Positions 5,007 to 18,928 of a stretch of 36,522 nt of DNA are shown piece after piece; the first letter of the stretch is position 1, and every line of letters starts with the position of its first letter. This DNA comes from Rhodothermales bacterium (GTDB lineage: Bacteria > Bacteroidota > Rhodothermia > Rhodothermales > Bin80): contig JAJECE010000003.1 in assembly GCA_022822185.1 (NCBI GenBank), positions 1-36,522 on the forward strand, given 5' to 3'. The translations under genes and the position numbers were made by a program. The notes beneath the pieces were generated by a model, which worked only from the letters and a program-made list of their open reading frames with translations, ran no database searches and had not been told where the DNA came from.

Positions 5007-6026
5007 TTGATTTTGACAACTCCAGAGACCGAAGTCCGGGTACTTGAGCGCCTTCGTGAGGGAAAGTCCAAGATTATGTCGCAGATCCGCCGCCGCATTG
5101 TTGGGCAGGATGATGTAGTTGAGCAGGTTTTGATTGCACTTTTTGCGGGCGGTCACTGTCTTTTAACGGGCGTTCCCGGCCTCGCAAAGACCCTGCTCAT
5201 CAAGTCTCTTGGCGAGATGCTGGATTTATCTTATAAGCGGATTCAGTTTACCCCGGATCTCATGCCGGCCGACATCACAGGGATGGATATGCTGGATGAG
5301 GATCGCACCACCGGCCGCAGGACCATTGAATTTGTGAAGGGGCCTATTTTTGCCAACATTATCCTTGCGGATGAGATTAATCGTACCCCGCCCAAGACGC
5401 AGGCGGCTCTTCTGGAAGCGATGCAGGAGTATCAGGTTACTGCTGCGGGGGAGCGGTATCTGCTGGATAAACCCTTCTTCGTGCTTGCAACCCAAAACCC
5501 GATTGAACTGGAGGGGACCTACCCGTTACCGGAGGCGCAGCTGGACCGGTTTATGTTCAATATTGTGATTGACTATTTGTCTGCGGAGGATGAGTTGACG
5601 GTTGCGCTGGAGACGACCAGCCGCGATCAGGAATCGGTGGAGAAGGTATTATCGGGGGCGGATATTCTGGCGTTTCAGGATGAGGTTCGCAATGTATTCG
5701 TTCCCAGGAATGTCGCGCAGTTTGCGGTGGATCTGGTCCGCAGTACGCGGCCCAATTCGGAGGATGCTTTGGAGTTTGTTTCAAACTGGGTGAGCTGGGG
5801 GGCCGGATTACGGGCCACGCAGTACCTCCTTCTTGGAGGCAAGGTGCGTGCTGCGCTTCGCGGCCGCTACAATGTAGCCATTGAGGACATTCGCGCTTTA
5901 GCGCATCCGGTCCTTCGTCACCGTGTATTGACAAATTTCTATGCAGAGAGTGAGGGCATAACGGTTGAGTCCGTCATTGACCGCCTTTTATCGGAGGTGC
6001 CTGAGTTAAAGAGCGGTCTTTCGTAG
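5007..6026 (+). CDS. MoxR family AAA+ ATPase
   Basis: A 339-residue AAA+ chaperone-like ATPase. Walker A is GVPGLAKT (lysine 61), Walker B is ILADEIN (Asp122-Glu123), and sensor 1 lies in FFVLATQNPIE, followed by the MoxR signature YPLPEAQLDRF. The C-terminal lid domain reads LRATQYLLLGGKVRAALRGR. MoxR proteins help mature metalloprotein or von Willebrand-domain partners and usually precede DUF58 and Bat genes; none follows here. No ATG fits the usual N-terminus: the frame opens with TTG at 5007 (a second TTG at 5013), and the first in-frame ATG, near 5073, would remove the first helix. The start is therefore uncertain by a few residues. The 3' third of the gene is repeated in decayed form at 8382-8779. 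Confidence 0.92.
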   Translation: MILTTPETEVRVLERLREGKSKIMSQIRRRIVGQDDVVEQVLIALFAGGHCLLTGVPGLAKTLLIKSLGEMLDLSYKRIQFTPDLMPADITGMDMLDEDRTTGRRTIEFVKGPIFANIILADEINRTPPKTQAALLEAMQEYQVTAAGERYLLDKPFFVLATQNPIELEGTYPLPEAQLDRFMFNIVIDYLSAEDELTVALETTSRDQESVEKVLSGADILAFQDEVRNVFVPRNVAQFAVDLVRSTRPNSEDALEFVSNWVSWGAGLRATQYLLLGGKVRAALRGRYNVAIEDIRALAHPVLRHRVLTNFYAESEGITVESVIDRLLSEVPELKSGLS

Positions 6027-6397
6027 TGAGGGCTTAAGGGAAGGGTTACGGTCGACATTTGCGTTTTTGTCCAGCATTTGTCTTGCACAAACTCAGCACG
6101 GCAACTTCGTCCATGCAAACATTAGAAGGATCATAGCAAGATGTTTTTGAACTCATACATCCTCTCGGCCGTTCGGGGCTCCGCAACGTTTCCTTACGTG
6201 TATACGGCGGTCTTTCGGTGCTTCAGTCTTTTGATGGAACTTCAACAGGAGGGAGGCTGGAGGCCTATTCAGGGGGGATACTTGAAGTTGTTGCCCGAAT
6301 CCCAATGAAATTTGTTCGGTGACAGCGAAGAGGCGAAAGAACAGATCACAGAGGAGAGATGGCATGGAAACCACACTTATTGACGAACAGAAAACGT

Positions 6398-6937: not shown

Positions 6938-8179
6938 ATGGCGATTAGGGAAAGAAAAACCTTTATTGACTTGTTCGCTGGATGTGGTGGTCTCTCACTC
7001 GGACTTATGCAGGCCGGCTGGGATGGCGTTTTTGCGATTGAGAAGTCGGTAGATGCATTTGAGACATTTCGCCATAATTTCTGTCAAAAAAAGTCCAAGT
7101 TGAGGTTCGCATGGCCTTCATGGCTGCCTTGCGAAGCAATGTCTACCGAAGACCTGCTGTCAAGTTATGCCAGCCAATTAAGGCAATTCAAGGGGAGGAT
7201 AGACCTGATTGCAGGTGGTCCACCGTGTCAGGGTTTTTCGTCGGCTGGCCTCCGGAATCCTGACGATCCCAGAAATGAACTTACACAAGAGTACATTGAT
7301 ATAGTGAAAATCTTGCAGCCAAGGTACTTACTATTGGAAAATGTGAGAGGATTCCAAATGAAATTCCCCGGCAAAGAGATTCCCTATTCGGAAATTGTCA
7401 AGAAAACACTGGAATCTTGTTCGGACTTTGGCTATCGGGTTTACTCATCAATGTTGAGTGCTTCCGATTTTGGGATACCACAGCCGCGCTCCCGCTTTAT
7501 AATGATTGCCATCAGAGATGACCAGCCCAAATCAGAAAGAAATCCATTCGATGCTCTAAAGGATAGTCTGCCTTACTTTCGGGAAATCAGGGGCCTGAAT
7601 GAGGATGAAACGGGAGTCCGTGAAGCGATCAGTGACTTAGAGATCCGTGCTCGAAAACTTAAGCCAAGCGTTGACAGCTCTGGCTTCAAACAGATCAACT
7701 ACGATGGAAGGCGGCATCTCACCGATTATCAAAAACTGATGCGCCGAAATGTGAAACGAAATTTTGAGCCGAACAGCCTACGTCTTGCAAATCACAGGGA
7801 AGGAACCCGTATCCGTTTTCAGGGGATTTTGGAAGAGTGCCCCAGAGGTGTCCATCTGTCGAAGGAAGATCGGGAGAAATTCGGAATGAAGAAACAGTCC
7901 TTTACCCCATTGCATCCCTCAAAACTGGCACGGACAGTTACGACGCTTCCTGACGATATGATCCACTATAAGGAACCAAGGATCCTTACAGTGCGCGAAA
8001 ATGCCCGGCTCCAGTCTTTTCCTGACTGGTTTAATTTTCAAGGTAAATATACAACCGGGGGGCAGCGCCGGAAACACGAATGTCCACGCTATACCCAGGT
8101 AGGAAATGCTGTTCCGCCTCTGATGGCAGAAGCTATAGGTGAGGTTCTATTACATTTGCTGCCAGATGACAGAACCTAG
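6938..8179 (+). CDS. DNA (cytosine-5)-methyltransferase
   Basis: A 413-residue C5-cytosine DNA methyltransferase with all main motifs in order: motif I FIDLFAGCGGLSLG near the N-terminus, motif IV GGPPCQGFSSAG with catalytic Cys97, motif VI LLENVRGF, motif VIII IPQPRSRF, and motifs IX-X (TVTTLPDDM ... QVGNAVPP). The target-recognition region lies roughly at 250-330, and the sequence it reads cannot be inferred. It transfers a methyl group from S-adenosylmethionine to cytosine in a short DNA site. No intact restriction enzyme gene is next to it: the frameshifted small gene overlapping its 3' end may be what is left of a partner. It is flanked by the intact moxR and by a decayed moxR fragment, suggesting acquisition. 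It may be an orphan or part of a broken type II system. Confidence 0.93.
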   Translation: MAIRERKTFIDLFAGCGGLSLGLMQAGWDGVFAIEKSVDAFETFRHNFCQKKSKLRFAWPSWLPCEAMSTEDLLSSYASQLRQFKGRIDLIAGGPPCQGFSSAGLRNPDDPRNELTQEYIDIVKILQPRYLLLENVRGFQMKFPGKEIPYSEIVKKTLESCSDFGYRVYSSMLSASDFGIPQPRSRFIMIAIRDDQPKSERNPFDALKDSLPYFREIRGLNEDETGVREAISDLEIRARKLKPSVDSSGFKQINYDGRRHLTDYQKLMRRNVKRNFEPNSLRLANHREGTRIRFQGILEECPRGVHLSKEDREKFGMKKQSFTPLHPSKLARTVTTLPDDMIHYKEPRILTVRENARLQSFPDWFNFQGKYTTGGQRRKHECPRYTQVGNAVPPLMAEAIGEVLLHLLPDDRT

Positions 8180-8381: not shown

Positions 8382-8779
8382 GAGTCGGTGGGAAGGTATT
8401 ATCGGGGCGGATATTCTGGCGTTTCAGGATAAGGTTGCAATGTATTCGTTCTCAGAAATGTCGCCCGGTTTGCGGTGGATCTGGTTCGCAGTATGCGGCC
8501 CAATTCGGAGGACGCTCTGGAGTTTGTTTCGAACTGGATGAGTTGGGGCGCAGGATTACGGGCCACGCATTACCTCCCTCTTGGGGGCAAATTGTGCGCT
8601 ATACTGCGCGGCCGCTACAACGTTGCTATTGAGAGCATTCACACTTTGGCACCCCCGGTCCTTCGTTACCGCGTCATGACAAATTTCTATGCAGAGAGTG
8701 AGGGATAACGGTTGAGTCCGTCATTGACCGCCTCTTATCAGAGTTGTCCGAGCCCATGAGCGATCTTTCGCAGTGGCAT
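8382..8779 (+). pseudogene. Decayed duplicate of the 3' third of moxR
   Basis: This stretch aligns base for base with 5632-6029 of the intact moxR, including the blocks that encode NSEDALEFVSNW, LRAT(Q/H)Y and TNFYAESEG. Several single-base deletions break the frame: gggggcgg has become ggggcgg near 8405, ggttcgcaatg has become ggttgcaatg near 8435, and gggcataacg has become gggataacg near 8703. The longest intact piece is 8475-8708. Upstream of 8382 there is no trace of the rest of moxR, so it is a partial copy with no ATPase motifs, certainly inactive. It forms a direct repeat of about 400 bp with the true moxR, enclosing the methyltransferase. Confidence 0.9.
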
Positions 8780-8931: not shown

Positions 8932-10242
8932 ATGGAACTTAGAAGGCTAGACCTTGAGCGATATAAGTGTTTTGACGCAAACACATCGTTTGAAATTGCT
9001 CCGTTAACTATTCTGGTGGGGGCGAATAATTCAGGCAAGACTGCATCGGCGCAAGCCATTCAGTTGGTTTCAAGCAGTTCGGCTTTTCCAAGTAACGACC
9101 GGCGAGAGCCTCTGTTGTTGAACTCCGAGGGGATTACTCATGGGACAATTTTCCAGGATTTAGTCTCCCGACATGCTGCACATGGTCAGTTATCCATGTC
9201 CGCAGTATTTGGAAATGGTAGCGATGAGGACGAATTATCGGTTGAGATTCAGAATGTAGTCAACGCATCCAAACCGTCTGAATCTACAGGGGTGATCAAG
9301 CATTGGAGCCTTCGTAGCCGAGGTAATGAGATTGAAGCAACTCGGGAATCGCTTCACGAAAAGGCTCTTTATCAGATCACTGTCTCTGGTGTTCTTCAAG
9401 ATTTGCAACAGATCAGTTGGGGAGGTCTCCTTCCATCAAGGTCTAATAGATTCCCAGATTGGGCCAATGAGAAAATGGACATGATCAGGGGATGGGCATC
9501 AGGGGTTCGTTACTTAACATGTCCTCGCAGTTTTCCGTCCTTCAATTTTTCAGTGAATAATTTTTCGCCAAGTTTTCACAGCACTACAGGTGCAACGGCA
9601 TCTCTGGAATTTGTTACAGATGATGATCTCCGAGATGCAGTCAGGCAGTGGTACCGAAATGTTTTCGGGGTTCGTCTCAATAAGAACACGAAAGCCGATC
9701 TGTATGATATTACCGTGGGAACACTGGATAATAGCACGAATGTATCTCTTGATCAGTCGGGTGCCGGGTTGTCACAAGTTTTTCCGGTAGCTGTTACCGC
9801 TCTTAAAGCAAGGAGGATGGGGCCGGGAGTTGATATCATTGAACTCCCGGAGGCAGGTCTTCACCCTGCTTTCCAAGCAGATGTTGCCGAACTCTTCGCA
9901 AAGAATCTTCCAGGGTTCAGCAGGCCGGTTATTATTGAGACCCACTCTGAAATGATCCTGCTTCGCATACGACGCTTAATCGCAGAGGGGAAGTTGCCAT
10001 CTGATCATGTAATTGTGTACTGGATCTATAACATGCCAGAATATGGTTCCAGATTACAGCAGATTAAGATCACGGATGAAGGTACAATGAGCAGTTGGCC
10101 GGAGGGGGTGTTCTATGAGGACTATGAAGAGATCCTTGCGATTCGGCGTGCAGTGCGAAGGGATCCACAGCCATCAGAGGTTGGTTCTCCTTCTAACCGT
10201 TCATCAGGTGGGATATCGCCGGCATTTACCGACAACCCATAA
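8932..10242 (+). CDS. AAA/ABC-type ATPase with DUF3696-like C-terminus
   Basis: A 436-residue ATPase of the SMC/OLD-like AAA class. Walker A is VGANNSGKT (lysine 36). The signature region is DQSGAGLSQVFPV. Walker B is VDIIELPEAGLHP (Glu307), and the ETHSE switch is at about 336-340. The tail (residues about 360-405: YWIYNMPEYGSRLQQI, then WPEGVFYEDYEE) fits the DUF3696 module found after this ATPase type. No nuclease domain of its own is visible. Such ATPases are common in phage-defence islands, often as energy-using partners of nucleases. A 256-bp gap with its own promoter separates it from the methyltransferase genes, so it may be a separate unit or a component of the same system. The ATG at 8932 begins right at the conserved first strand. 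Confidence 0.85.
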   Translation: MELRRLDLERYKCFDANTSFEIAPLTILVGANNSGKTASAQAIQLVSSSSAFPSNDRREPLLLNSEGITHGTIFQDLVSRHAAHGQLSMSAVFGNGSDEDELSVEIQNVVNASKPSESTGVIKHWSLRSRGNEIEATRESLHEKALYQITVSGVLQDLQQISWGGLLPSRSNRFPDWANEKMDMIRGWASGVRYLTCPRSFPSFNFSVNNFSPSFHSTTGATASLEFVTDDDLRDAVRQWYRNVFGVRLNKNTKADLYDITVGTLDNSTNVSLDQSGAGLSQVFPVAVTALKARRMGPGVDIIELPEAGLHPAFQADVAELFAKNLPGFSRPVIIETHSEMILLRIRRLIAEGKLPSDHVIVYWIYNMPEYGSRLQQIKITDEGTMSSWPEGVFYEDYEEILAIRRAVRRDPQPSEVGSPSNRSSGGISPAFTDNP

Positions 10243-10441
10243 GCCCCTGACACCAGTGTACGGCGTTCAGGTTATTATTCCCCCAAATTAGATTATCTTT
10301 CCTTGCGTCAGGAATGATTCACGATGATCAGTCAACTTTCTTTAGAAGGTTACGGTATGCCAAAAGAAGTGTCAAATAGGGCTTTTCGGTGCTTGCTTGC
10401 TGGATATCGCTGGATTAACTGCTTTGGTGATCCCTGAATGT

Positions 10442-10473
10442 TTTGTATTTGCACCTCGGATCCGGTACATTTG
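10442..10473 (+). promoter_or_regulatory. Bacteroidota-type promoter ahead of the split methyltransferase genes
   Basis: TTTG at 10442-10445 and TACATTTG at 10466-10473 are separated by 20 bp. This matches the known -33 TTTG / -7 TAnnTTTG promoter of Bacteroidota and its usual spacing. Transcription would begin near 10480, leaving a leader of about 25 nt before the ATG at 10505. It indicates that the methyltransferase/helicase genes are driven separately from the ATPase gene upstream. Confidence 0.55.
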
Positions 10474-10504
10474 ATTCGGGCACAGAACGATTATTTTTTT
10501 GAGC

Positions 10505-11269
10505 ATGAACGCTCCTCTTTTTGATACGATACCCGCTGAGACGGTCCCAACTAAGGATCTGCCTGTTGCCGACAGTAAGCAATCGCATGCGCAGGCTATT
10601 CGGAATCGGGTCAATAACTACCTTGAAACTGCTCTGGAGGAAGATGATTCTCCCATACTGGTACGTGATACAGATCGCGTAGATAATTACGGTGAGGTTT
10701 TCACTCCGCACTGGCTTGTCAAACAGATGCTGGACCACATGCCGGGTGACGTTGTTGCGGATTTGAACAAGTCAGCCCTCGATCCTTCCTGTGGAAACGG
10801 GCAGTTTCTGACCGAGGCACTGCGGCGCAAACTGGTGACCGCTGCCAAACTTTTTGCAGATTCACTGGATCACGAGCAATATCAATTCGACTGTATGCGG
10901 GCTCTATCGATGGTGTACGGGGTTGATATTAACGCAGACACCGCTACCGAGGCACGAGAGCGCATGGCAGCCATCGTTTTTAAAGCGTATGAAGCGGTAG
11001 TCGGGAGTAAACCGGACATTGACTTTGACTGTGCAGTTAAATATATTCTTCAGACCAATATCGTCGTTGGCGACTTTTTGGCGGACGATTATTCTTTGGT
11101 AGAATGGATTCCGCACAGTAAAAACTCATTTGAGCGGAGAGTCTGGCCCGCACAGATCATTTGTTCTAAAAAACATCAGCAGAGTACCCTTTTCCAGGAA
11201 ATGCTGGAACCCTCCAAAATTCTGCCACCTGTGCATTGGAGAGACATTACGGTCAGTAGTGAGAGTTGA
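10505..11269 (+). CDS. N6-adenine methyltransferase-like protein lacking the catalytic NPPY motif
   Basis: A 254-residue protein with an N6-adenine methyltransferase type SAM-binding half. GEVFTPHWLVKQMLDHM leads into motif I, DPSCGNGQF (Asp93), then MVYGVDINADT (motif II) and NIVVGDFLADD (motif III). The catalytic (D/N)PPY of motif IV should follow but is absent: the chain goes to a different ending, HSKNSFERRVWPAQII, and stops. The next gene begins 2 bp after the stop and carries its own FTP/motif I region plus NPPY, so the pair could form a heterodimer in which this chain is regulatory or helps bind DNA or SAM. The ATG at 10505 is chosen over an in-frame TTG two codons upstream. Truncation of a longer enzyme is an alternative, but the tight spacing argues for a functional pair. 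Confidence 0.8.
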   Translation: MNAPLFDTIPAETVPTKDLPVADSKQSHAQAIRNRVNNYLETALEEDDSPILVRDTDRVDNYGEVFTPHWLVKQMLDHMPGDVVADLNKSALDPSCGNGQFLTEALRRKLVTAAKLFADSLDHEQYQFDCMRALSMVYGVDINADTATEARERMAAIVFKAYEAVVGSKPDIDFDCAVKYILQTNIVVGDFLADDYSLVEWIPHSKNSFERRVWPAQIICSKKHQQSTLFQEMLEPSKILPPVHWRDITVSSES

Positions 11270-11271
11270 TT

Positions 11272-12789
11272 ATGCACAGGCCTGACGTACTGGAATGCCT
11301 TGCGAATTTATCCAGTGACGAGGTATTTACGCCGCCGGCATTTGCCAGGGGTATGTTGGACCGTCTACCAGATCGGGTCTGGCGGGATCCCTCGTTGAAG
11401 TGGCTTGATCCATGTACAAAGAGTGGTATTTTTCTCTATGAGGCGGCACAGCGATTAATGGAGGGCCTCAAATCGGAGATCCCCGATTATAGGGATCGTC
11501 GTGAGCACATTTATCGCAATATGCTCTATGGTATTGCGATTTCGGAACTTACGGGACTGATTTCTCGCCGTACCCTATATCACTGCAAGGATGCCAGTCT
11601 CGGGGCATACAGCATCGTCAGGTTTGACAATCCGGAGGGTAACATTCGTTTTCCTGAAGTGCAGTTTGAAGGGAAGGGGGGAAAACGTATTCATTTCGGA
11701 GTGAGCAAGGCAAAGAAGAGGATTGAAGAGGGACGAGAAGCGCACATTCACCCTTTCCTCCACATGAGTTTAAGAAAAATATTCGAAGAAGACAATATGC
11801 ATGCTGATATAATCATAGGCAACCCTCCCTATCAGATGCAGGATGGAGGAGGCACTGGAAAAAGTGCTACTCCGCTCTACAACAGATTTGTAGAAAAGGC
11901 CAAGGAGATAGACCCTGAACTGCTCACCTTTGTCATTCCTGCTCGCTGGTATGCGGGTGGCAAGGGGTTGGACAATTTTCGATCAGAAATGTTATCTGAT
12001 ACAAAAATATCAATTCTGGTAGACTATCCGCGTTCCGGCGATGTGTTTCCAGATGTAGATATTGCGGGAGGAATTTGCTCATTTTTGCGGGATAAAAATC
12101 ACCAAGGGGACTGCTTGGTCCTTCCGAACGGGGAAACCAGAGGAGCAACGCTTCGGAGGCTTGATGCACATCAGGTATTTGTCCGAGATAGTCGAGATGT
12201 TGCGATACTTGAGAAGGTGCTGGCGAAGACGCAGGCGCAAGGATGGGGTGTCATGAGTAGCATTGTGCGGCCAAGGAATTTCTACGGGCTACAAGCACAC
12301 AAACTGCCATCGTCAGTGACGGACGAGCAATCCTCTTCAGAGGCGACAATGCTCGTGACAAAGGATGGCGACAAGTATATCCCAAAAGATGCTGTCAGCA
12401 AAAACGCAGAAACGATCAATCACTGGAAGGTCATCATCTCCAAAACAAATCCCCAAGGTGGAAAAGCTGACAAACAGGGCCTTCGTGTTGTTATTAGCAA
12501 GCCGCGGGTGATTCCCCCGAATAGCGCTTGTACGGAAACGTACCTTGTCATCAATCTCTTTCAGCAGCATGAACCTGCAGGGCGGCTGTTGGATTACGTT
12601 AAATCAAGATTTTTCCGATTTCTCGTATCGCTGAAAACACCGACTCACAACATCTCCCAGACTTGTTTCGGGTTCGTCCCTCAACTACCTTTAGATCGTA
12701 ATTGGACGGATGAGATTTTGTATGAGCTCTTTGAACTAGAGAGTTCAGAGATTGCGCATATTGAGAGCAAGATTAAGCCGATCAATTGA
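11272..12789 (+). CDS. Eco57I-type N6-adenine DNA methyltransferase
   Basis: A 505-residue adenine methyltransferase. DEVFTPPAFARGML near the start, motif I-like DPCTKSGIF (Asp46) and catalytic NPPYQ (Asn184-Tyr187, preceded by ADIIIG) define the family. FVIPARWYAGGKGLDNFR and the later ISKPRVIPPNSACTETY region match the downstream part of Eco57I-type and related fused methyltransferases, where sequence recognition usually lies. It should methylate adenine at N6 in a specific DNA site. It starts 2 bp after the NPPY-less partner (a GAGAG stretch 6 bp before the ATG may be the ribosome site; an in-frame TTG lies two codons earlier). The helicase-nuclease gene follows after 131 bp. Together they look like a restriction-modification set; the recognition sequence is unknown. 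Confidence 0.87.
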   Translation: MHRPDVLECLANLSSDEVFTPPAFARGMLDRLPDRVWRDPSLKWLDPCTKSGIFLYEAAQRLMEGLKSEIPDYRDRREHIYRNMLYGIAISELTGLISRRTLYHCKDASLGAYSIVRFDNPEGNIRFPEVQFEGKGGKRIHFGVSKAKKRIEEGREAHIHPFLHMSLRKIFEEDNMHADIIIGNPPYQMQDGGGTGKSATPLYNRFVEKAKEIDPELLTFVIPARWYAGGKGLDNFRSEMLSDTKISILVDYPRSGDVFPDVDIAGGICSFLRDKNHQGDCLVLPNGETRGATLRRLDAHQVFVRDSRDVAILEKVLAKTQAQGWGVMSSIVRPRNFYGLQAHKLPSSVTDEQSSSEATMLVTKDGDKYIPKDAVSKNAETINHWKVIISKTNPQGGKADKQGLRVVISKPRVIPPNSACTETYLVINLFQQHEPAGRLLDYVKSRFFRFLVSLKTPTHNISQTCFGFVPQLPLDRNWTDEILYELFELESSEIAHIESKIKPIN

Positions 12790-12920
12790 AATTGTGACGC
12801 ACGACCTTGCAAATTTTTCCAAGTTAAGTCAGTAGCGATAACCGATGACGGGCAAGAACTAATGAGACGGCAGTGCCTCACATGGAACAAAAATTTGGCT
12901 ATTGAACCGGAGATTTTTAG

Positions 12921-15335
12921 GTGATGGGTAGAAGTAATACAGACCAAGCTCCCAAAATCTATGCATACACCTACGGGGAGTATTGTGAGAAAATATGGGA
13001 GCACCGCAGTGGCGGCCATGGATGGATGAAGGTGGGCTATACCGAGAAAGATGTTGCCCAGCGCGTCAAAGAACAAACGAGGGGCAGCGTTCCCGGTGAA
13101 GTGAAGCTGTTATGGGAAGAGGATGCGATATCTGATCATGGCCAGCCATTCAAAGATAACGAAGTACATAAGCGGTTGATCAAGAATGGTGCGCATAAAG
13201 TACACAATGAATGGTTTGAGGCAACTCTGGATGAACTAAAAATTGCAATTGCAGAGATCAAACAAGGCCGCAGAGTAGCCGCACCGGAGAATTTTGAAAT
13301 GCGCCCCGAACAGAGTGAAGCCGTGGAGCAGACAGCGGCTTACTTCCGAGGGCAGGTGGAGGATCAGGCCAGACGGTTCCTCTGGAATGCAAAAATGCGA
13401 TTCGGGAAGACATTTGCCTCCTATCAATTGGCCCTTGAAATGGGCTGGACGAAGTTGCTAATCCTCACTTACAAACCCGCGGTGGAGGATTCCTGGAGGG
13501 ATGATTTGGAGCGGCATCAGGATTTTGAGGGTTGGCAATTTATTGGCAAGGGAGAAGGCTTCGGCAGTATTGATGAGTCGGCTCCATACGTATGGATGGC
13601 CTCGTTTCAGGATATGATGCAGCGTACTGTGGAGGGGGAAATAAAAGACCGTCACGAGTTAATCTACGTCATTGAATGGGACTGCATCATTATTGATGAA
13701 TATCACTTCGGTGCCTGGCGAAGTAATGCAAAAGAGCTTTATGAATCTGACAAGTCTGATGAGGAAGCAGAGTTCATGGACGACTATGATCCTGATAGAT
13801 CGCTGAGGGAGGATTTTTCAATTATCGGTGCACACAGGCTCTACCTGTCGGGTACCCCATTTAGGGCATTGGCCGAGGGCGAGTTCGGTGAAGATCAGAT
13901 ATACAACTGGACGTATGCGGATGAGCAGAAGGCCAAACAGGCATGGCAGGGAGAACCCGATGAAGAGAATCCATATTCTCCCTTACCGCAGTTGAAGATA
14001 TTCACCTATAAGATCAGCGATGCGACCCGGTCTCATGCGGAGGCTACATTCGATGATGAATTCAGCCTGAATGGTTTCTTTCAGGCGAAATATCAGGACA
14101 GAATCCCAAGATTCAGCAGAGAAAATGATGTGCAGAAGTGGCTGGACTGGCTGCATAAGCGGGTAAAGATCACCGAACAGAACGATCACCCAGGGCCCCT
14201 TGCCGATCCCAAACTCCGTAGTTCCCTGCATCATACTGTATGGCATCTTCCTGATGTAGCATCCTGCAGAGCGATGGAAAGGCTCCTTAAGGAACCCCAG
14301 AATTTCTATTTTAACGAGTACAAAATTATTTGTGCAGCAGGAGCGAGGGCAGGTGTAGGGATTAAAGCATTGGGGCCTGTGCGAAATGCAATTGGTGATG
14401 GTTCACGCACGAAAACCATTACCCTAACATGTGGAAAGCTGTTAACCGGGGTTACCGTACCTCAATGGAGTGCAATCTTTATGCTTCGGGATACAAAATC
14501 CGCCGAAACCTATTTTCAGGCCGCATTTCGGGTTCAATCGCCTTGGACTCGTTCCGTAGACAGTAACCCAAAGATCCAAGAGATCCTCAAGCGGGAGGCA
14601 TTTGTGTTTGATTTTGCGCAAAACCGTGCACTGGAAATGGTATACGGATTCTGTGCAAAACAGGTCAATGCAAAGGGGGACGGTAATGTGAAAGCCGAGG
14701 TAGGTGAATTTCTGAACTTTCTCCCCATTCTGGCATACGAGGACGGCAAATTAGTTAAACTGAACGCAACAGATCTGATGGATAAAGCAACATCCGGGGT
14801 TGGCTCTGTGATGCTGGCCAAGCGGTGGCAGTCATCCCGCATGATTAATCTGAGTCGTGCTGCATTGGAGGGAATTCTGAACAATGAAGATCTTCTGAAG
14901 TCACTGGAGAATATGGAGGCCTTTCGCGCTTTGCGGAAGCATACCTCGGAAATACTGATATCGGAAAAAGCCATAAGGAAGGCCAAGGCAGAAGGCAAGA
15001 AAAAATCCACGGTTAGCAGTGAGAAAAGGGAGATGGCGAAACGCCGCAAAAAAATCCAGGAAGCTCTCCTGAAGTTTTTGACCAGAGTTCCCATTTTTAT
15101 GTACCTGACGGACTACAGAGAGGAGAGTCTCGTCGATGTGATTCGTAATGTAGAGCCGGCCCTTTTCACGAAGGTCACAGGATTGAAAATTGGAGATTTT
15201 GATGCTCTGTGCAAACTGGGTGTATTTAACACGCAGATATTGAATCAGGCAATCTATGCCTTCAAGCGTCAGGAGCATTTCAGTTTAACGGGTGGAAGAG
15301 TGTCGCAGGGACAAGAGGAGATGGGCAATGATTAA
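12921..15335 (+). CDS. GIY-YIG (T5orf172-like) nuclease fused to SF2 helicase
   Basis: An 804-residue protein. Residues about 10-115 match T5orf172/MUG113-type GIY-YIG nucleases: KIYAYTY, then WMKVGYT with arginine in AQRVKEQ, glutamate in DNEVHKRL and a closing NEWFEA. From about 130 it is a superfamily 2 helicase: NAKMRFGKT (Walker A, lysine 163), IIIDEYHFG (DEYH box, Asp259-His262), LYLSGTPF (motif III), and in the second RecA lobe TCGKLLTGVTVPQW and ETYFQAAFRVQSP (motifs V-VI). The last 150 residues are lysine-rich and helical. The natural reading is a restriction subunit that translocates on DNA and cuts with the GIY-YIG domain. It begins with GTG at 12921, 8 bp after GGAG; an ATG lies one codon on. 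It follows the methyltransferase genes on the same strand. Confidence 0.87.
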   Translation: MMGRSNTDQAPKIYAYTYGEYCEKIWEHRSGGHGWMKVGYTEKDVAQRVKEQTRGSVPGEVKLLWEEDAISDHGQPFKDNEVHKRLIKNGAHKVHNEWFEATLDELKIAIAEIKQGRRVAAPENFEMRPEQSEAVEQTAAYFRGQVEDQARRFLWNAKMRFGKTFASYQLALEMGWTKLLILTYKPAVEDSWRDDLERHQDFEGWQFIGKGEGFGSIDESAPYVWMASFQDMMQRTVEGEIKDRHELIYVIEWDCIIIDEYHFGAWRSNAKELYESDKSDEEAEFMDDYDPDRSLREDFSIIGAHRLYLSGTPFRALAEGEFGEDQIYNWTYADEQKAKQAWQGEPDEENPYSPLPQLKIFTYKISDATRSHAEATFDDEFSLNGFFQAKYQDRIPRFSRENDVQKWLDWLHKRVKITEQNDHPGPLADPKLRSSLHHTVWHLPDVASCRAMERLLKEPQNFYFNEYKIICAAGARAGVGIKALGPVRNAIGDGSRTKTITLTCGKLLTGVTVPQWSAIFMLRDTKSAETYFQAAFRVQSPWTRSVDSNPKIQEILKREAFVFDFAQNRALEMVYGFCAKQVNAKGDGNVKAEVGEFLNFLPILAYEDGKLVKLNATDLMDKATSGVGSVMLAKRWQSSRMINLSRAALEGILNNEDLLKSLENMEAFRALRKHTSEILISEKAIRKAKAEGKKKSTVSSEKREMAKRRKKIQEALLKFLTRVPIFMYLTDYREESLVDVIRNVEPALFTKVTGLKIGDFDALCKLGVFNTQILNQAIYAFKRQEHFSLTGGRVSQGQEEMGND

Positions 15336-15799: not shown

Positions 15800-16660
15800 C
15801 TAGAATTTGTCTTCATAGGATTGAAAATTACCAGAACCTTCAATTTCAATAGCATACCGAAACCGCAACTCGTCTGAATCATTTTCCCGTGTATCATCCT
15901 TGATGTCAAGGATTTGGAGCGCAGCGTAAAATCCATGTATGTTCTGTAAAACTACAATCTGATTCAATTGAGGGGTTCGGGCGCGTGAGGTGTAGTCTAG
16001 TTCTTCTGCCGCAGAAATTTCGTGGATAAAGGTTTCGTTTTTGGCCAAAGCAACACCGTGGATAGAATCGGGATCATTATAGATATGTATGGAGCCGTTA
16101 CTTGCCTTTGACCATTGTGTCTCAAATTTGGTGGTACCAGATCCGATAGTGTACCGGCCATTAAAGTTGCTGTAATCAAAAACAACTTCCCCGACTTGAG
16201 ATGTCATTCTTGGATGCGGGATATCTGAAGCTTTTTCGGCACGCGGGTCCATCCCAATTTTTTCGGCTATGATAGTTGCGAGCTCTGCCGGGGTACACTC
16301 TTGGGCTTTGAGGTACATAATTGATTCTGGTAGCCCAGGAACCGGTGTGTCGTCAAAACGCACTGGAATGACATATTCTGAAGTTTCTCTGGATGCACGT
16401 TCAAGTATAATCTGTCTCTCGTGTGTTGGCCAACGTTTTTTCACATAGTCAGAGGAAATAAACATTACTGCGAAGGTTGACATTTCCCCGAATATTTTTT
16501 CAAATATTTCTAAGCCGTCATGTCCCCAAAGCCATGTTTGTTCATATCCATCGTAAAAAACGGGGATAGACCTTTTTGAGAGATGATGAGCTACTTCTTC
16601 AACATAATCTCGCTGCTCTCCAGCGAACGACAATGCTACTTGGAATGTTTTATTGGTCAT
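15800..16660 (-). CDS. TIR domain protein with C-terminal putative sensor domain
   Basis: A 286-residue protein. Residues 5-140 form a bacterial TIR domain: VALSFAGEQRDYVEEVAHHL (first strand and helix), PVFYDGYE (second strand), FISSDYVKKRWPTHE with a WxxxE motif whose Glu81 is the likely catalytic glutamate, and VIPVRFDDTPVPGL. Bacterial TIR domains of this class cleave NAD+ or make nucleotide signals from it, usually to stop phage infection by abortive growth arrest. Residues about 155-286 are a beta-rich domain (FDYSNFNGRYTIGSG, SIHIYNDPDS, QIVVLQNIHGFYAAL, LQILDIKDDTREND). I recall this as a recurrent partner of TIR domains, but its ligand is unknown. It lies 37 bp downstream of the Fic gene on the same strand, so the two are probably co-transcribed. 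Confidence 0.88.
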   Translation of the reverse strand: MTNKTFQVALSFAGEQRDYVEEVAHHLSKRSIPVFYDGYEQTWLWGHDGLEIFEKIFGEMSTFAVMFISSDYVKKRWPTHERQIILERASRETSEYVIPVRFDDTPVPGLPESIMYLKAQECTPAELATIIAEKIGMDPRAEKASDIPHPRMTSQVGEVVFDYSNFNGRYTIGSGTTKFETQWSKASNGSIHIYNDPDSIHGVALAKNETFIHEISAAEELDYTSRARTPQLNQIVVLQNIHGFYAALQILDIKDDTRENDSDELRFRYAIEIEGSGNFQSYEDKF

Positions 16661-16697
16661 TAGTTTGGAAGATCATATGATGAGATGTTTGGAATTT

Positions 16698-17810
16698 TTA
16701 GGTTGCACACAGAATATCTAATAGATCGGGGAAAGCATACAAGGCAGGCCGACGACCACTCCCTGCGCTCATTTGCTGCAAGATTCCATGCTCACAAAGC
16801 GTTGCCAATAGCCTGTGGGCGGTGCTTGAGGGGATTTTTGTTTGATCGCTGAAATGACCCATATTGAATACTGGGCATGAGAATACAGCCTCCATGACCT
16901 GGGGATCGTATCTGGTGCGCATCAGTTGCTCCATGCGTGTTTCAATTTTGTGATATAGCTTCTGTATTCTCTTTACCAACGAATGCGAGTATATGGATTG
17001 CTCCCTAACAGCATCCAGAAAAAAACTGCACCAGCCAGTCCAATCGTCGTCTCTTGACACAGCCAGTAGCCGGTCATAGTATTCACGATGATGCGCTACA
17101 AGCCATTGGCTAATAAAGAAAACTGGTTCGTGAATCAGGCCGGATTGCCACATGGACAGCGGTATGATCAAGCGGCCGACTCGCCCATTACCATCCTCAA
17201 ATGGGTGCAGTGCTTCAAATTCTGCGTGCATGATTGCACTCTGCACAAGCCGGTCTTGCACATGAGCAGACTGATAATCGTCCCATTGTCGAATTGACTG
17301 TTCGAGATTTTCGGGCGCAATGGGAATATATCTCATGTCATGGATGGTGCCTCCTGGAGGCCCTATGTAATTCTGGCATGTTCGAAATTTTCCAGGCGAC
17401 TTATCTCGGCCACGAACGCTGTTCATTAAATCAGAGTGTGCAGACTTAACAATATCCATAGACAGTCTACACGATTCCTCATGCATTGATGTGGCTGCGT
17501 GATTGAGTGCTTCACGGCAGTTCAATATCTCCTGTATATTATCCAGCAATACGGTCGAGGCGGGGAGGTGACCGCCTTCAAACTTCATCACATCTATTGA
17601 TGACGCATAGATACCCTCAATGTGGGAGGAATGAACTGCCTCATTCAATTGCAAATGGCCCAGAAAGAGTTTAGAGTTAGGTGCATCGGACAATAACTGA
17701 TCAAATTTGGCAAGGGCCATATAGGCGGGGCCGATTTTTGGGATCAAGGTTGACCAGTTGATTCTGTCATCTGGCGGGAATGCTTCAAAACGATAATGAG
17801 CGGGCGGCAT
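16698..17810 (-). CDS. Fic family protein (AMP-transferase) with winged helix C-terminus
   Basis: A 370-residue Fic protein. The catalytic motif HPFEDGNGRVGR is intact at 202-213. SSHIEG at 61-66 is the N-terminal inhibitory motif ([S/T]xxxE[G/N]), making it a class II Fic protein that holds itself inactive until a partner or ligand frees it. Residues about 305-370 look like a winged helix-turn-helix (SDQTKIPSSTAHRLLATLCEHGIL), seen in many chromosomal Fic proteins and suited to autoregulation. Fic enzymes usually transfer AMP from ATP to a hydroxyl side chain of a target protein; the target here is unknown. The ATG at 17810 is preferred to a TTG at 17822. It is the first gene of a two-gene unit with the TIR gene, directly beside a 70-bp repeat array. 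Confidence 0.9.
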   Translation of the reverse strand: MPPAHYRFEAFPPDDRINWSTLIPKIGPAYMALAKFDQLLSDAPNSKLFLGHLQLNEAVHSSHIEGIYASSIDVMKFEGGHLPASTVLLDNIQEILNCREALNHAATSMHEESCRLSMDIVKSAHSDLMNSVRGRDKSPGKFRTCQNYIGPPGGTIHDMRYIPIAPENLEQSIRQWDDYQSAHVQDRLVQSAIMHAEFEALHPFEDGNGRVGRLIIPLSMWQSGLIHEPVFFISQWLVAHHREYYDRLLAVSRDDDWTGWCSFFLDAVREQSIYSHSLVKRIQKLYHKIETRMEQLMRTRYDPQVMEAVFSCPVFNMGHFSDQTKIPSSTAHRLLATLCEHGILQQMSAGSGRRPALYAFPDLLDILCAT

Positions 17811-17860
17811 ACAAGCAAGCAAAAAACGATTCTAATGCCGTGTACTGAAAACGAGGTCTT

Positions 17861-18075
17861 TATGTTCCAGATTTCGGTATTTTTGGGGAGAAAGCGAGTT
17901 TGTAACCCGTGGACGGGAAGCAAAGTAGTTAATGTTCCATATTTTGTCATTTTCGGGAAGCAAGTGAGTTTATATCCCGTGGACGGGAAGCAAAGTAGTT
18001 AATGTTCCATATTTTGTCATTTTCGGGAAGCAAGTGAGTTTGTATCCCGTGGACGGGAAGCAAAGCAGTTCGCGT
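17861..18075. repeat. Three tandem copies of a 70-bp repeat upstream of the Fic gene
   Basis: GGACGGGAAG recurs at 17911, 17981 and 18051, exactly 70 bp apart, and the sequence between is almost fully conserved in the last two copies (the first is more diverged). Each copy has the perfect inverted repeat CCCGTGGACGGG and two uses of CGGGAAGCAA, 30 and 40 bp apart, so the unit is itself a diverged doublet. As both 'repeat' and 'spacer' parts are conserved, this is not a CRISPR array. The array starts 50 bp upstream of the Fic ATG (minus strand), so it overlaps the likely promoter region and could bind a regulator such as the Fic winged helix, or make a structured RNA. Confidence 0.9.
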
Positions 18076-18928
18076 TCCCAGAATTAATACAGGTGGTGCT
18101 GCTGCCGCTCATAAAAATGTCCCGTGCATCAACGTTTGGTGCTGTAACGGTGTGTATGTGTATTCATCAGCTCCCGAAGAATCTGCGGGAACTTGACATG
18201 TTCAATGGTTTCCAGTGCCATCCGCTCCCCGGCAACCGTGCGGGATTCCGTATGGCGGATCTCATAGGTGAGGATCTTGTCGCGGTAATCCGGCGGCTTC
18301 GCATAGACACCTTTGTCCTGGAGTCGTTTCACGATGAGATTTAGGGCCTTCTGGAAATCTTCATCGTCTTCTTTGCGGGAGATGATATCCTGGCCCTTTC
18401 AGTTGGGGAACGACACATTGAGTGAGTTCTCCCTAGTCTTCTTGGGGATATGGAGAAATCTGGACTGAGATTCAGTAGGGGGAAGTGTCGGGGCGTACCA
18501 TCGACAACTGGGACTGGAGGAGGGAAAAGCTTTGCCCTTTTTTGCCTTCCACGGTGGTATAGAGTCGTGCACGAATGAACATGATGTAGCGCAGGGGTTT
18601 GTGAAATGATAACTGGTGCGCGGGTAGGACAATCCGATTCCAACGCTTATAGCACTAGATAGAGTTTTTGACGAAAAATATACGATTTCGTGTATCTAGG
18701 CGGGATCAGAGGGTGAAAAATAGATGATTTGGCCATCTACGATACACAGTTGTGCTGTTTAACTCTGTGGTCATACTCTGTCCACGGGCTGCTATGCACA
18801 ACAATGTCGGTAGAACCAAATCTGAACATAGATGCTGCCTGGTAATATATCCCATTGATTCTAGAATTCTGAAACCCCTGACTTTATGCAAAGGCGGTTA
18901 ATCTAAGACAAATCCCTTACACAAGTAG
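18076..18928. other. Right edge of the accessory region without an intact gene
   Basis: Apart from the decayed minus-strand gene at 18129-18640, nothing convincing is seen. From 18641 to the permease start at 18929 the sequence is A/T-rich, with stops in all frames. A small A/T-rich inverted repeat (18721-18739) lies there with no gene it would obviously serve. Confidence 0.5.
18129..18640 (-). pseudogene. Decayed gene of unknown family
   Basis: A minus-strand frame reads coherently from about 18480 down to the stop at 18129-18131, with only one internal TGA at 18398-18400. Before it comes RFLHIPKKTRENSLNVSFP; after it EDDEDFQKALNLIVKRLQDK and VYAKPPDYRDKILTYEIRHT, then ERMALETIEHVKFPQILREL. 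Further upstream a shifted frame has HKPLRYIMFIRARLYTTVEG (about 18600-18540). The charged, protein-like composition and frame changes suggest a real gene broken by a nonsense change and at least one frameshift. I do not recognise the family. Confidence 0.45.

What the first reader, a model, noticed from the sequence alone, without database searches (positions are those of the whole stretch)
8932..15335. Candidate restriction-like defence cluster: DUF3696 ATPase, split N6-methyltransferase, GIY-YIG helicase
Four same-strand genes: an OLD/SMC-like ATPase, two neighbouring N6-adenine methyltransferase chains, and a T5orf172 GIY-YIG nuclease fused to an SF2 helicase. The nuclease-translocase with a paired methyltransferase looks like a restriction system of an uncommon make-up (type I/III-like motor but GIY-YIG cutter). 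The DUF3696 ATPase may be an added effector or a separate system.
Basis: partly seen in the sequence, partly recalled or inferred. Interest (0 to 1): 0.78.

Follow-up and report, generated by a model that had tools for sequence, protein, structure and literature searches.

The report
DrdVI-type split restriction-modification system
Three of the four genes form a widespread restriction-modification system already known from the DrdVI enzyme, with a two-chain methyltransferase and a GIY-YIG nuclease-motor protein; the ATPase gene in front is a stray piece of a different candidate defence system.

Summary
The genes are real. The chain pair at 10505-11269 (M1) and 11272-12789 (M2), followed by the GIY-YIG/SF2-helicase protein at 12924-15335 (R), is a DrdVI-type "split" Type IIG restriction-modification (RM) system. 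All three align nearly end to end with the DrdVI genes of Deinococcus wulumuqiensis plasmid pDrdVI (31%, 40% and 42% identity), whose M1-2 pair is published as an m6A methyltransferase for GCAGCC. A second relative, MaeIV, is published for GCACY. In 106 of 106 outside loci that hold all three genes, the order is M1-M2-R on one strand; no other flanking gene recurs in more than 8. The ATPase at 8932-10242 is not part of it: it is the A subunit of PADLOC's candidate PDC-M55 system, found in relatives with its own B and C partners, and solitary here. One detail I did not find described: M1 keeps a canonical SAM motif but never has NPPY, while M2 has NPPY but an invariant lysine in place of the SAM-loop glycine and no motif-II acid. 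Neither chain alone has a full motif set, so a composite or partner-dependent enzyme is likely. New member of a known kind; methylation specificity here is unknown.

The parts
10505..11269 (+). M1: small methyltransferase chain (254 aa); canonical SAM-binding motifs X, I, II, III, no catalytic NPPY
   Evidence: 31% to M1.DrdVI, E 3e-24; motif I Gly 134/135, acidic motif II 135/135, NPPY-like 0/135 in family; AlphaFold model pLDDT 88.6, best structural match MmeI MTase Z 13.2, CamA Z 12.4
10778..10807 (+). M1 motif I LDPSCGNGQF
   Evidence: sequence, column counts
11272..12789 (+). M2: large methyltransferase chain (ORF from TTG 11266; likely start ATG 11272), Eco57I-type gamma MTase plus C-terminal target-recognition region
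   Evidence: 40% to M2.DrdVI over full length, E 3e-125; Pfam Eco57I; model pLDDT 88.6, CamA Z 22.7, BrxX 20.1, LlaGI 19.8, DrdV 19.6, M.TaqI 19.1
11419..11421 (+). M2 Lys52 codon (residue 1 = 11266): lysine in place of the first Gly of the SAM loop (LDPCTKSGIF)
   Evidence: Lys in 133/133 aligned M2 proteins; kept in the fused Firmicutes branch
11821..11832 (+). M2 motif IV NPPY (catalytic)
   Evidence: 132/133 M2 proteins carry an NPPY-like motif
12924..15335 (+). R: GIY-YIG (T5orf172) nuclease fused to SF2 helicase/translocase (ORF from GTG 12921; likely start ATG 12924)
   Evidence: 42% to DrdVI R over full length; Pfam T5orf172, MUG113, ResIII; invariant R48/E97 (nuclease), K163 Walker A, D259-E260-x-H262, S310-G311-T312 (SF2)
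12996..13259 (+). T5orf172/GIY-YIG nuclease domain of R
   Evidence: Pfam PF10544, E 1e-8
8932..10242 (+). Solitary AAA ATPase, PDC-M55A; in the finding's span but NOT part of the RM system
   Evidence: PADLOC PDC-M55A E 2e-65; relatives carry it with PDC-M55B and PDC-M55C; partners absent in window; absent from 126 DrdVI-type loci

Best explanation
M1, M2 and R (10505-15335) are a three-gene DrdVI-type split Type IIG RM system. M1 and M2 together form one N6-adenine methyltransferase with a single target-recognition region in the C-terminal part of M2, and mark one strand of a short asymmetric site in the host genome. R carries a GIY-YIG nuclease at its N-terminus and an SF2 ATP-dependent motor, and cuts DNA that lacks the mark, most likely after docking on M1-M2 at the target and hydrolysing ATP. 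Shown here: homology to DrdVI in all three chains, conserved gene order, intact nuclease and motor residues, and the motif split between M1 and M2. Shown by others for relatives: m6A methylation of GCAGCC (M1-2.DrdVI) and GCACY (M1-2.MaeIV). Inferred: complex formation between M1, M2 and R, ATP-dependent cleavage and phage restriction. The ATPase at 8932-10242 is an unrelated remnant of a PDC-M55 cassette.
For: Window M1/M2/R against M1/M2/R of pDrdVI: 31% E 3e-24, 40% E 3e-125, 42% E 0, nearly end to end. [quoted passage not shown] coli (PMC6430315); DrdVI R described as a fused translocase and REase, its homologue bearing a GIY-YIG domain (PMC4996451); [quoted passage not shown] 106/106 loci in the order M1-M2-R on one strand, no other flanking gene in more than 8/106. 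In Firmicutes plasmids R and M2 are one chain with M1 just upstream, and PADLOC's REase_MTase_IIG model spans both. Nuclease and motor residues of R invariant in 13 diverse homologues. ATPase separate.
Against: No activity data for this locus. Cleavage and phage restriction by a DrdVI-type R were not described in any paper I could read; the published work is on methylation. M1 shares only about 31% identity with M1.DrdVI. A comparable GIY-YIG/helicase/MTase set in B. subtilis (dnmA-yeeB-yeeC) gave no phage protection when tested (PMC9973331), so an intact locus need not be an active one.
Confidence: 0.9

Rival explanations
1. A four-gene system in which the ATPase is an added effector or sensor for the RM core.
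For: The ATPase lies 262 bp upstream on the same strand, in the same low-G+C island.
Against: No ATPase homologue in 126 DrdVI-type loci; in relatives it lies on other contigs or in genomes without the RM genes and heads its own cassette with PDC-M55B and PDC-M55C in 6 of 9 loci looked at.
Confidence: 0.04
2. An inactive relic: M1-M2 still methylate (an orphan-like epigenetic role) while R no longer restricts.
For: Precedent in dnmA-yeeB-yeeC (PMC9973331); broken copies of R occur nearby in the genus (G007, G009 remnants with stops; B. trehalosi fragments, PMC4996451).
Against: In the window all three frames are open and every nuclease and motor residue that is invariant in the family is present; similarity to the nearest relatives is spread over the full length.
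Confidence: 0.2
3. A Type ISP- or Type III-like system of a different lineage rather than DrdVI-type Type IIG.
For: SF2 motor plus gamma MTase plus single TRD resembles LlaGI/LlaBIII; M2 model matches LlaGI with Z 19.8 and LlaBIII with Z 19.7.
Against: Nuclease is GIY-YIG, not the Mrr-like/PD-(D/E)XK domain of Type ISP or Type III (established knowledge of those families; for the window); MTase is split into two chains; closest named sequence relatives are the DrdVI genes.
Confidence: 0.04

Closest known systems
DrdVI of Deinococcus wulumuqiensis 479 (M1-2.DrdVI + DrdVI; pDrdVI, CP031164)
   Same: Same three genes, order and strand; 31/40/42% identity over nearly full length; same GIY-YIG + SF2 architecture of R
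   Different: Diverged M2 target-recognition region, so GCAGCC specificity cannot be assumed; window M1 has about 45 extra N-terminal residues; no plasmid backbone here
MaeIV of Methanococcus aeolicus (M1-2.MaeIV, GCACY)
   Same: Published as a split methylase/RM similar to DrdVI with single-strand m6A
   Different: Not compared residue by residue here; different motif and host domain
Fused R-M2 form on Lactococcus, Enterococcus and Pediococcus plasmids (PADLOC REase_MTase_IIG PDLC03626)
   Same: Same domains with M1 encoded just upstream
   Different: R and M2 are one 1417-1461 aa chain; D-P of motif I also lost in M2
OspHL35III / DnmA-YeeB-YeeC type (MTase + helicase + GIY-YIG)
   Same: Same three activities, T5orf172 nuclease
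   Different: MmeI-like one-chain MTase, separate nuclease and helicase proteins (PMC4752239, PMC9973331)
Type ISP (LlaGI, LlaBIII)
   Same: SF2 motor and gamma m6A MTase with one TRD; M2 fold matches
   Different: One polypeptide with an Mrr-like nuclease, no M1 chain, no GIY-YIG
PADLOC PDC-M55 (for the ATPase only)
   Same: ATPase matches PDC-M55A, E 2e-65; relatives have B and C (GmrSD_N/DUF262)
   Different: B and C missing in the window

Membership tests
DrdVI-type split Type IIG RM | M1, M2 and R homologous to the DrdVI chains over their length | tested here: met
DrdVI-type split Type IIG RM | Gene order M1-M2-R on one strand | tested here: met
   window; pDrdVI; 106/106 relatives
DrdVI-type split Type IIG RM | R = GIY-YIG nuclease fused to SF2 translocase with intact residues | tested here: met
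DrdVI-type split Type IIG RM | M1+M2 give m6A on one strand of an asymmetric site | not testable with these tools
   Published for DrdVI and MaeIV only
DrdVI-type split Type IIG RM | R cleaves unmethylated DNA | not testable with these tools
   needs biochemistry
Type ISP RM | Single polypeptide nuclease-motor-MTase-TRD | tested here: not met
   three ORFs
Type ISP RM | Mrr-like PD-(D/E)XK nuclease at the N-terminus | tested here: not met
   N-terminus is T5orf172/MUG113
Type III RM | Mod with beta-class motif order and Res with C-terminal PD-(D/E)XK | tested here: not met
   M2 has gamma order (motif I before IV) and an Eco57I match; nuclease of R is N-terminal GIY-YIG
PDC-M55 candidate system (ATPase) | A subunit present | tested here: met
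PDC-M55 candidate system (ATPase) | B and C genes adjacent | tested here: not met
   No significant match to B/C proteins of relatives in the window

The most novel reading that the evidence does not exclude
The methyltransferase is a true composite: M1 supplies the cofactor and M2 the catalytic NPPY and target recognition, with M2's own cofactor pocket altered or closed by a conserved lysine, so that neither chain can methylate alone. This would be a bacterial DNA counterpart of METTL3/METTL14-like heterodimers with the roles divided differently, and would make assembly of M1 with M2 an on-switch for the whole RM system.
Probability: 0.4. Interest if true: 0.5.

Novelty: new member of a known kind. 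Interest (0 to 1): 0.3.

Why it matters
It places an apparently odd cluster in a named family, shows that this family is widespread (many bacterial phyla, plasmids, viral contigs), and takes the ATPase out of it. The near-invariant division of methyltransferase motifs between two chains, with an absolutely conserved lysine in the cofactor loop of M2, gives a concrete question: how two incomplete chains make one m6A enzyme.

Tried and rejected
DUF3696 ATPase as part of the system: rejected. The m5C methyltransferase (6938-8179), TIR protein and Fic protein as parts: m5C homologue near 1 of 126 loci, Fic near 3, TIR near none, so rejected. First genome-contig scan with R alone gave no relatives, probably because of poor peptide patterns; repeated with the M2 alignment. 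No sequence-level PDB relative for R or M2; weak ones for M1: 3ufb E 1e-5 and MmeI E 0.008. Natural M1-M2 fusions, which would have allowed the pair to be modelled as one chain: none among 126 loci; the hits labelled M1+M2 are cross-matches between the two paralogous domains. Literature on PDC-M55: none found.

Full report
What is there. The window is a whole 36.5-kb contig of a 3.7-Mb genome. Between about 6000 and 18500 the G+C content falls from 51-59% to 41-50%, and this stretch holds defence-type genes: an m5C methyltransferase (6938-8179), an AAA ATPase (8932-10242), two adenine-methyltransferase chains (10505-11269 and 11272-12789), a T5orf172/SF2 protein (12924-15335), and on the minus strand a Fic protein (17822-16698) followed by a TIR protein (16660-15800). 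The DUF3696 label for the ATPase is weak (E 0.0017, under Pfam's cut-off); PADLOC calls it PDC-M55A.

What recurs. The last three genes recur as a set. In genomes related to the window, the R protein was found with M2 next to it and M1 in front. A profile of M2 found 46 viral-contig loci and 563 relatives in genome contigs, of which 80 were fetched. In all 106 of these 126 loci where the three genes are present they lie in the order M1-M2-R on one strand, with a median M1-M2 overlap of 14 bases and a median M2-R gap of 5; many of the rest are cut by contig ends or hold only M2 fragments. As a control, no other gene family within 4 kb recurs in more than 8 of the 106. The ATPase occurs in none, the m5C MTase in one, Fic in three, TIR in none. 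R-type matches were found in 26 of 296 genomes drawn from the phylum.

What it is. One plasmid hit of R was plasmid pDrdVI of Deinococcus wulumuqiensis NEB 479. Window M1, M2 and R match the three adjacent pDrdVI genes at 31%, 40% and 42% identity over nearly their whole lengths. Fomenkov et al. [quoted passage not shown] coli (PMC6430315). PMC4996451 describes DrdVI as a fused translocase and REase, next to M1.DrdVI and M2.DrdVI, and notes the GIY-YIG domain in its homologue. [quoted passage not shown] On Firmicutes plasmids the same system occurs with R and M2 fused into one chain and M1 just upstream, and PADLOC's REase_MTase_IIG model matches both window proteins in its two halves. The system is thus a new member of a known kind. 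That the three adjacent pDrdVI genes are M1, M2 and R of DrdVI follows from the plasmid's table entry and the order given in the papers; the gene names themselves are not in the plasmid record.

How the methyltransferase is divided. M1 (135 sequences) keeps the canonical SAM loop (first Gly 134, second Gly 133) and an acidic residue in motif II in all, but no NPPY-like motif in any. M2 (133 sequences) has an NPPY-like motif in 132, yet lysine in all 133 where the first SAM-loop glycine should be, and Ala/Gly/Ser/Pro where the motif-II acid should be. The lysine is kept in the fused Firmicutes branch even where the neighbouring D-P is lost. The viral scan used a pattern containing this lysine and is biased for it; the genome-contig scan did not. 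The M2 model (pLDDT 88.6) has the whole gamma-class fold with target-recognition region, like CamA (Z 22.7, rmsd 4.2, 406 aligned), BrxX (Z 20.1), LlaGI (19.8), DrdV (19.6) and M.TaqI (19.1). The M1 model (pLDDT 88.6) matches only the cofactor half of such enzymes (MmeI Z 13.2, rmsd 2.7, 140 aligned; CamA Z 12.4). I infer one functional m6A enzyme made of both chains. That M1 provides the cofactor in trans is a possibility and not shown; M2 could bind SAM in an altered way and M1 could be a structural or regulatory partner. DrdVI and MaeIV were reported as M1-2 pairs, and I found no report of single-chain tests.

How restriction most likely works. R has the GIY-YIG (T5orf172) domain at residues 26-113 with invariant Arg48 and Glu97, and SF2 motifs (Lys163, D259-E-x-H262, SGT 310-312) invariant in 13 diverse homologues. 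No target-recognition domain was recognised in it, so it probably takes its target from M1-M2, as in Type IIG, ISP and III systems, and cuts when the site is unmethylated. This is inference; no cleavage data for a DrdVI-type R were found. An intact but inactive system is possible: the comparable dnmA-yeeB-yeeC set of B. subtilis gave no phage protection (PMC9973331).

The ATPase. Homologues in the same genus and family sit on other contigs, far from the RM genes, or in genomes without them. In six of nine loci examined the ATPase is followed by two further conserved genes; the two from one such locus match PDC-M55B and PDC-M55C, the latter with a GmrSD_N (DUF262) domain. Neither partner, nor a recognisable piece of one, is in the window. 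The window copy is therefore a solitary member of a separate candidate system.

Verdict. Observation confirmed; interpretation partly supported; interest modest (0.3). The M1/M2 motif division is the part worth an experiment.

Noticed in passing
5655-6028 and 8404-8775: The 3' end of the moxR-like gene (5007-6026) is duplicated about 2.75 kb downstream at roughly 85% identity, with the m5C methyltransferase between the copies; suggests that the island grew by insertion at the end of moxR.
   Followed up: partly
6938-8179: m5C DNA methyltransferase (dcm family, E 6e-45) with no nuclease partner seen beside it.
   Followed up: partly
15800-17822, minus strand: Fic (SoFic-like, PADLOC E 2e-97) followed by a TIR-domain protein whose C-terminal half has no significant Pfam match; possible separate two-gene unit.
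   Followed up: no
17859-18078: Three tandem copies of a 70-base repeat (83-86% identity) directly upstream of the Fic gene.
   Followed up: no
G000:C77:39844-41070 (L198 5845-7137): A second PDC-M55A-type ATPase in the same genome, broken by a stop codon.
   Followed up: no
L083, L085, L091, L110, L112, L121 and others, between M2 and R: 41 of 106 DrdVI-type loci have a gap of 250 bases or more between M2 and R, often with an extra ORF: KilA-N, Bro-N or HARE-HTH proteins, and a small family without Pfam match (L083, L085, L092-L094).
   Followed up: partly
L012 5339-6730: A relative carries a broken second M2/R copy just upstream of its intact M1-M2-R set.
   Followed up: no
L022 (Corynebacterium crudilactis pCRULAC2): A DrdVI-type R gene separated from its Eco57I-type methylase gene by a Tn3/IS block with aph(3'')-Ib and aph(6)-Id.
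   Followed up: no
11665-11700 (M2 residues 134-145): A CxxC knuckle conserved in 90% or more of the sampled M2 family is lost in the window's M2 and in two of its nearest relatives but kept in another.
   Followed up: no
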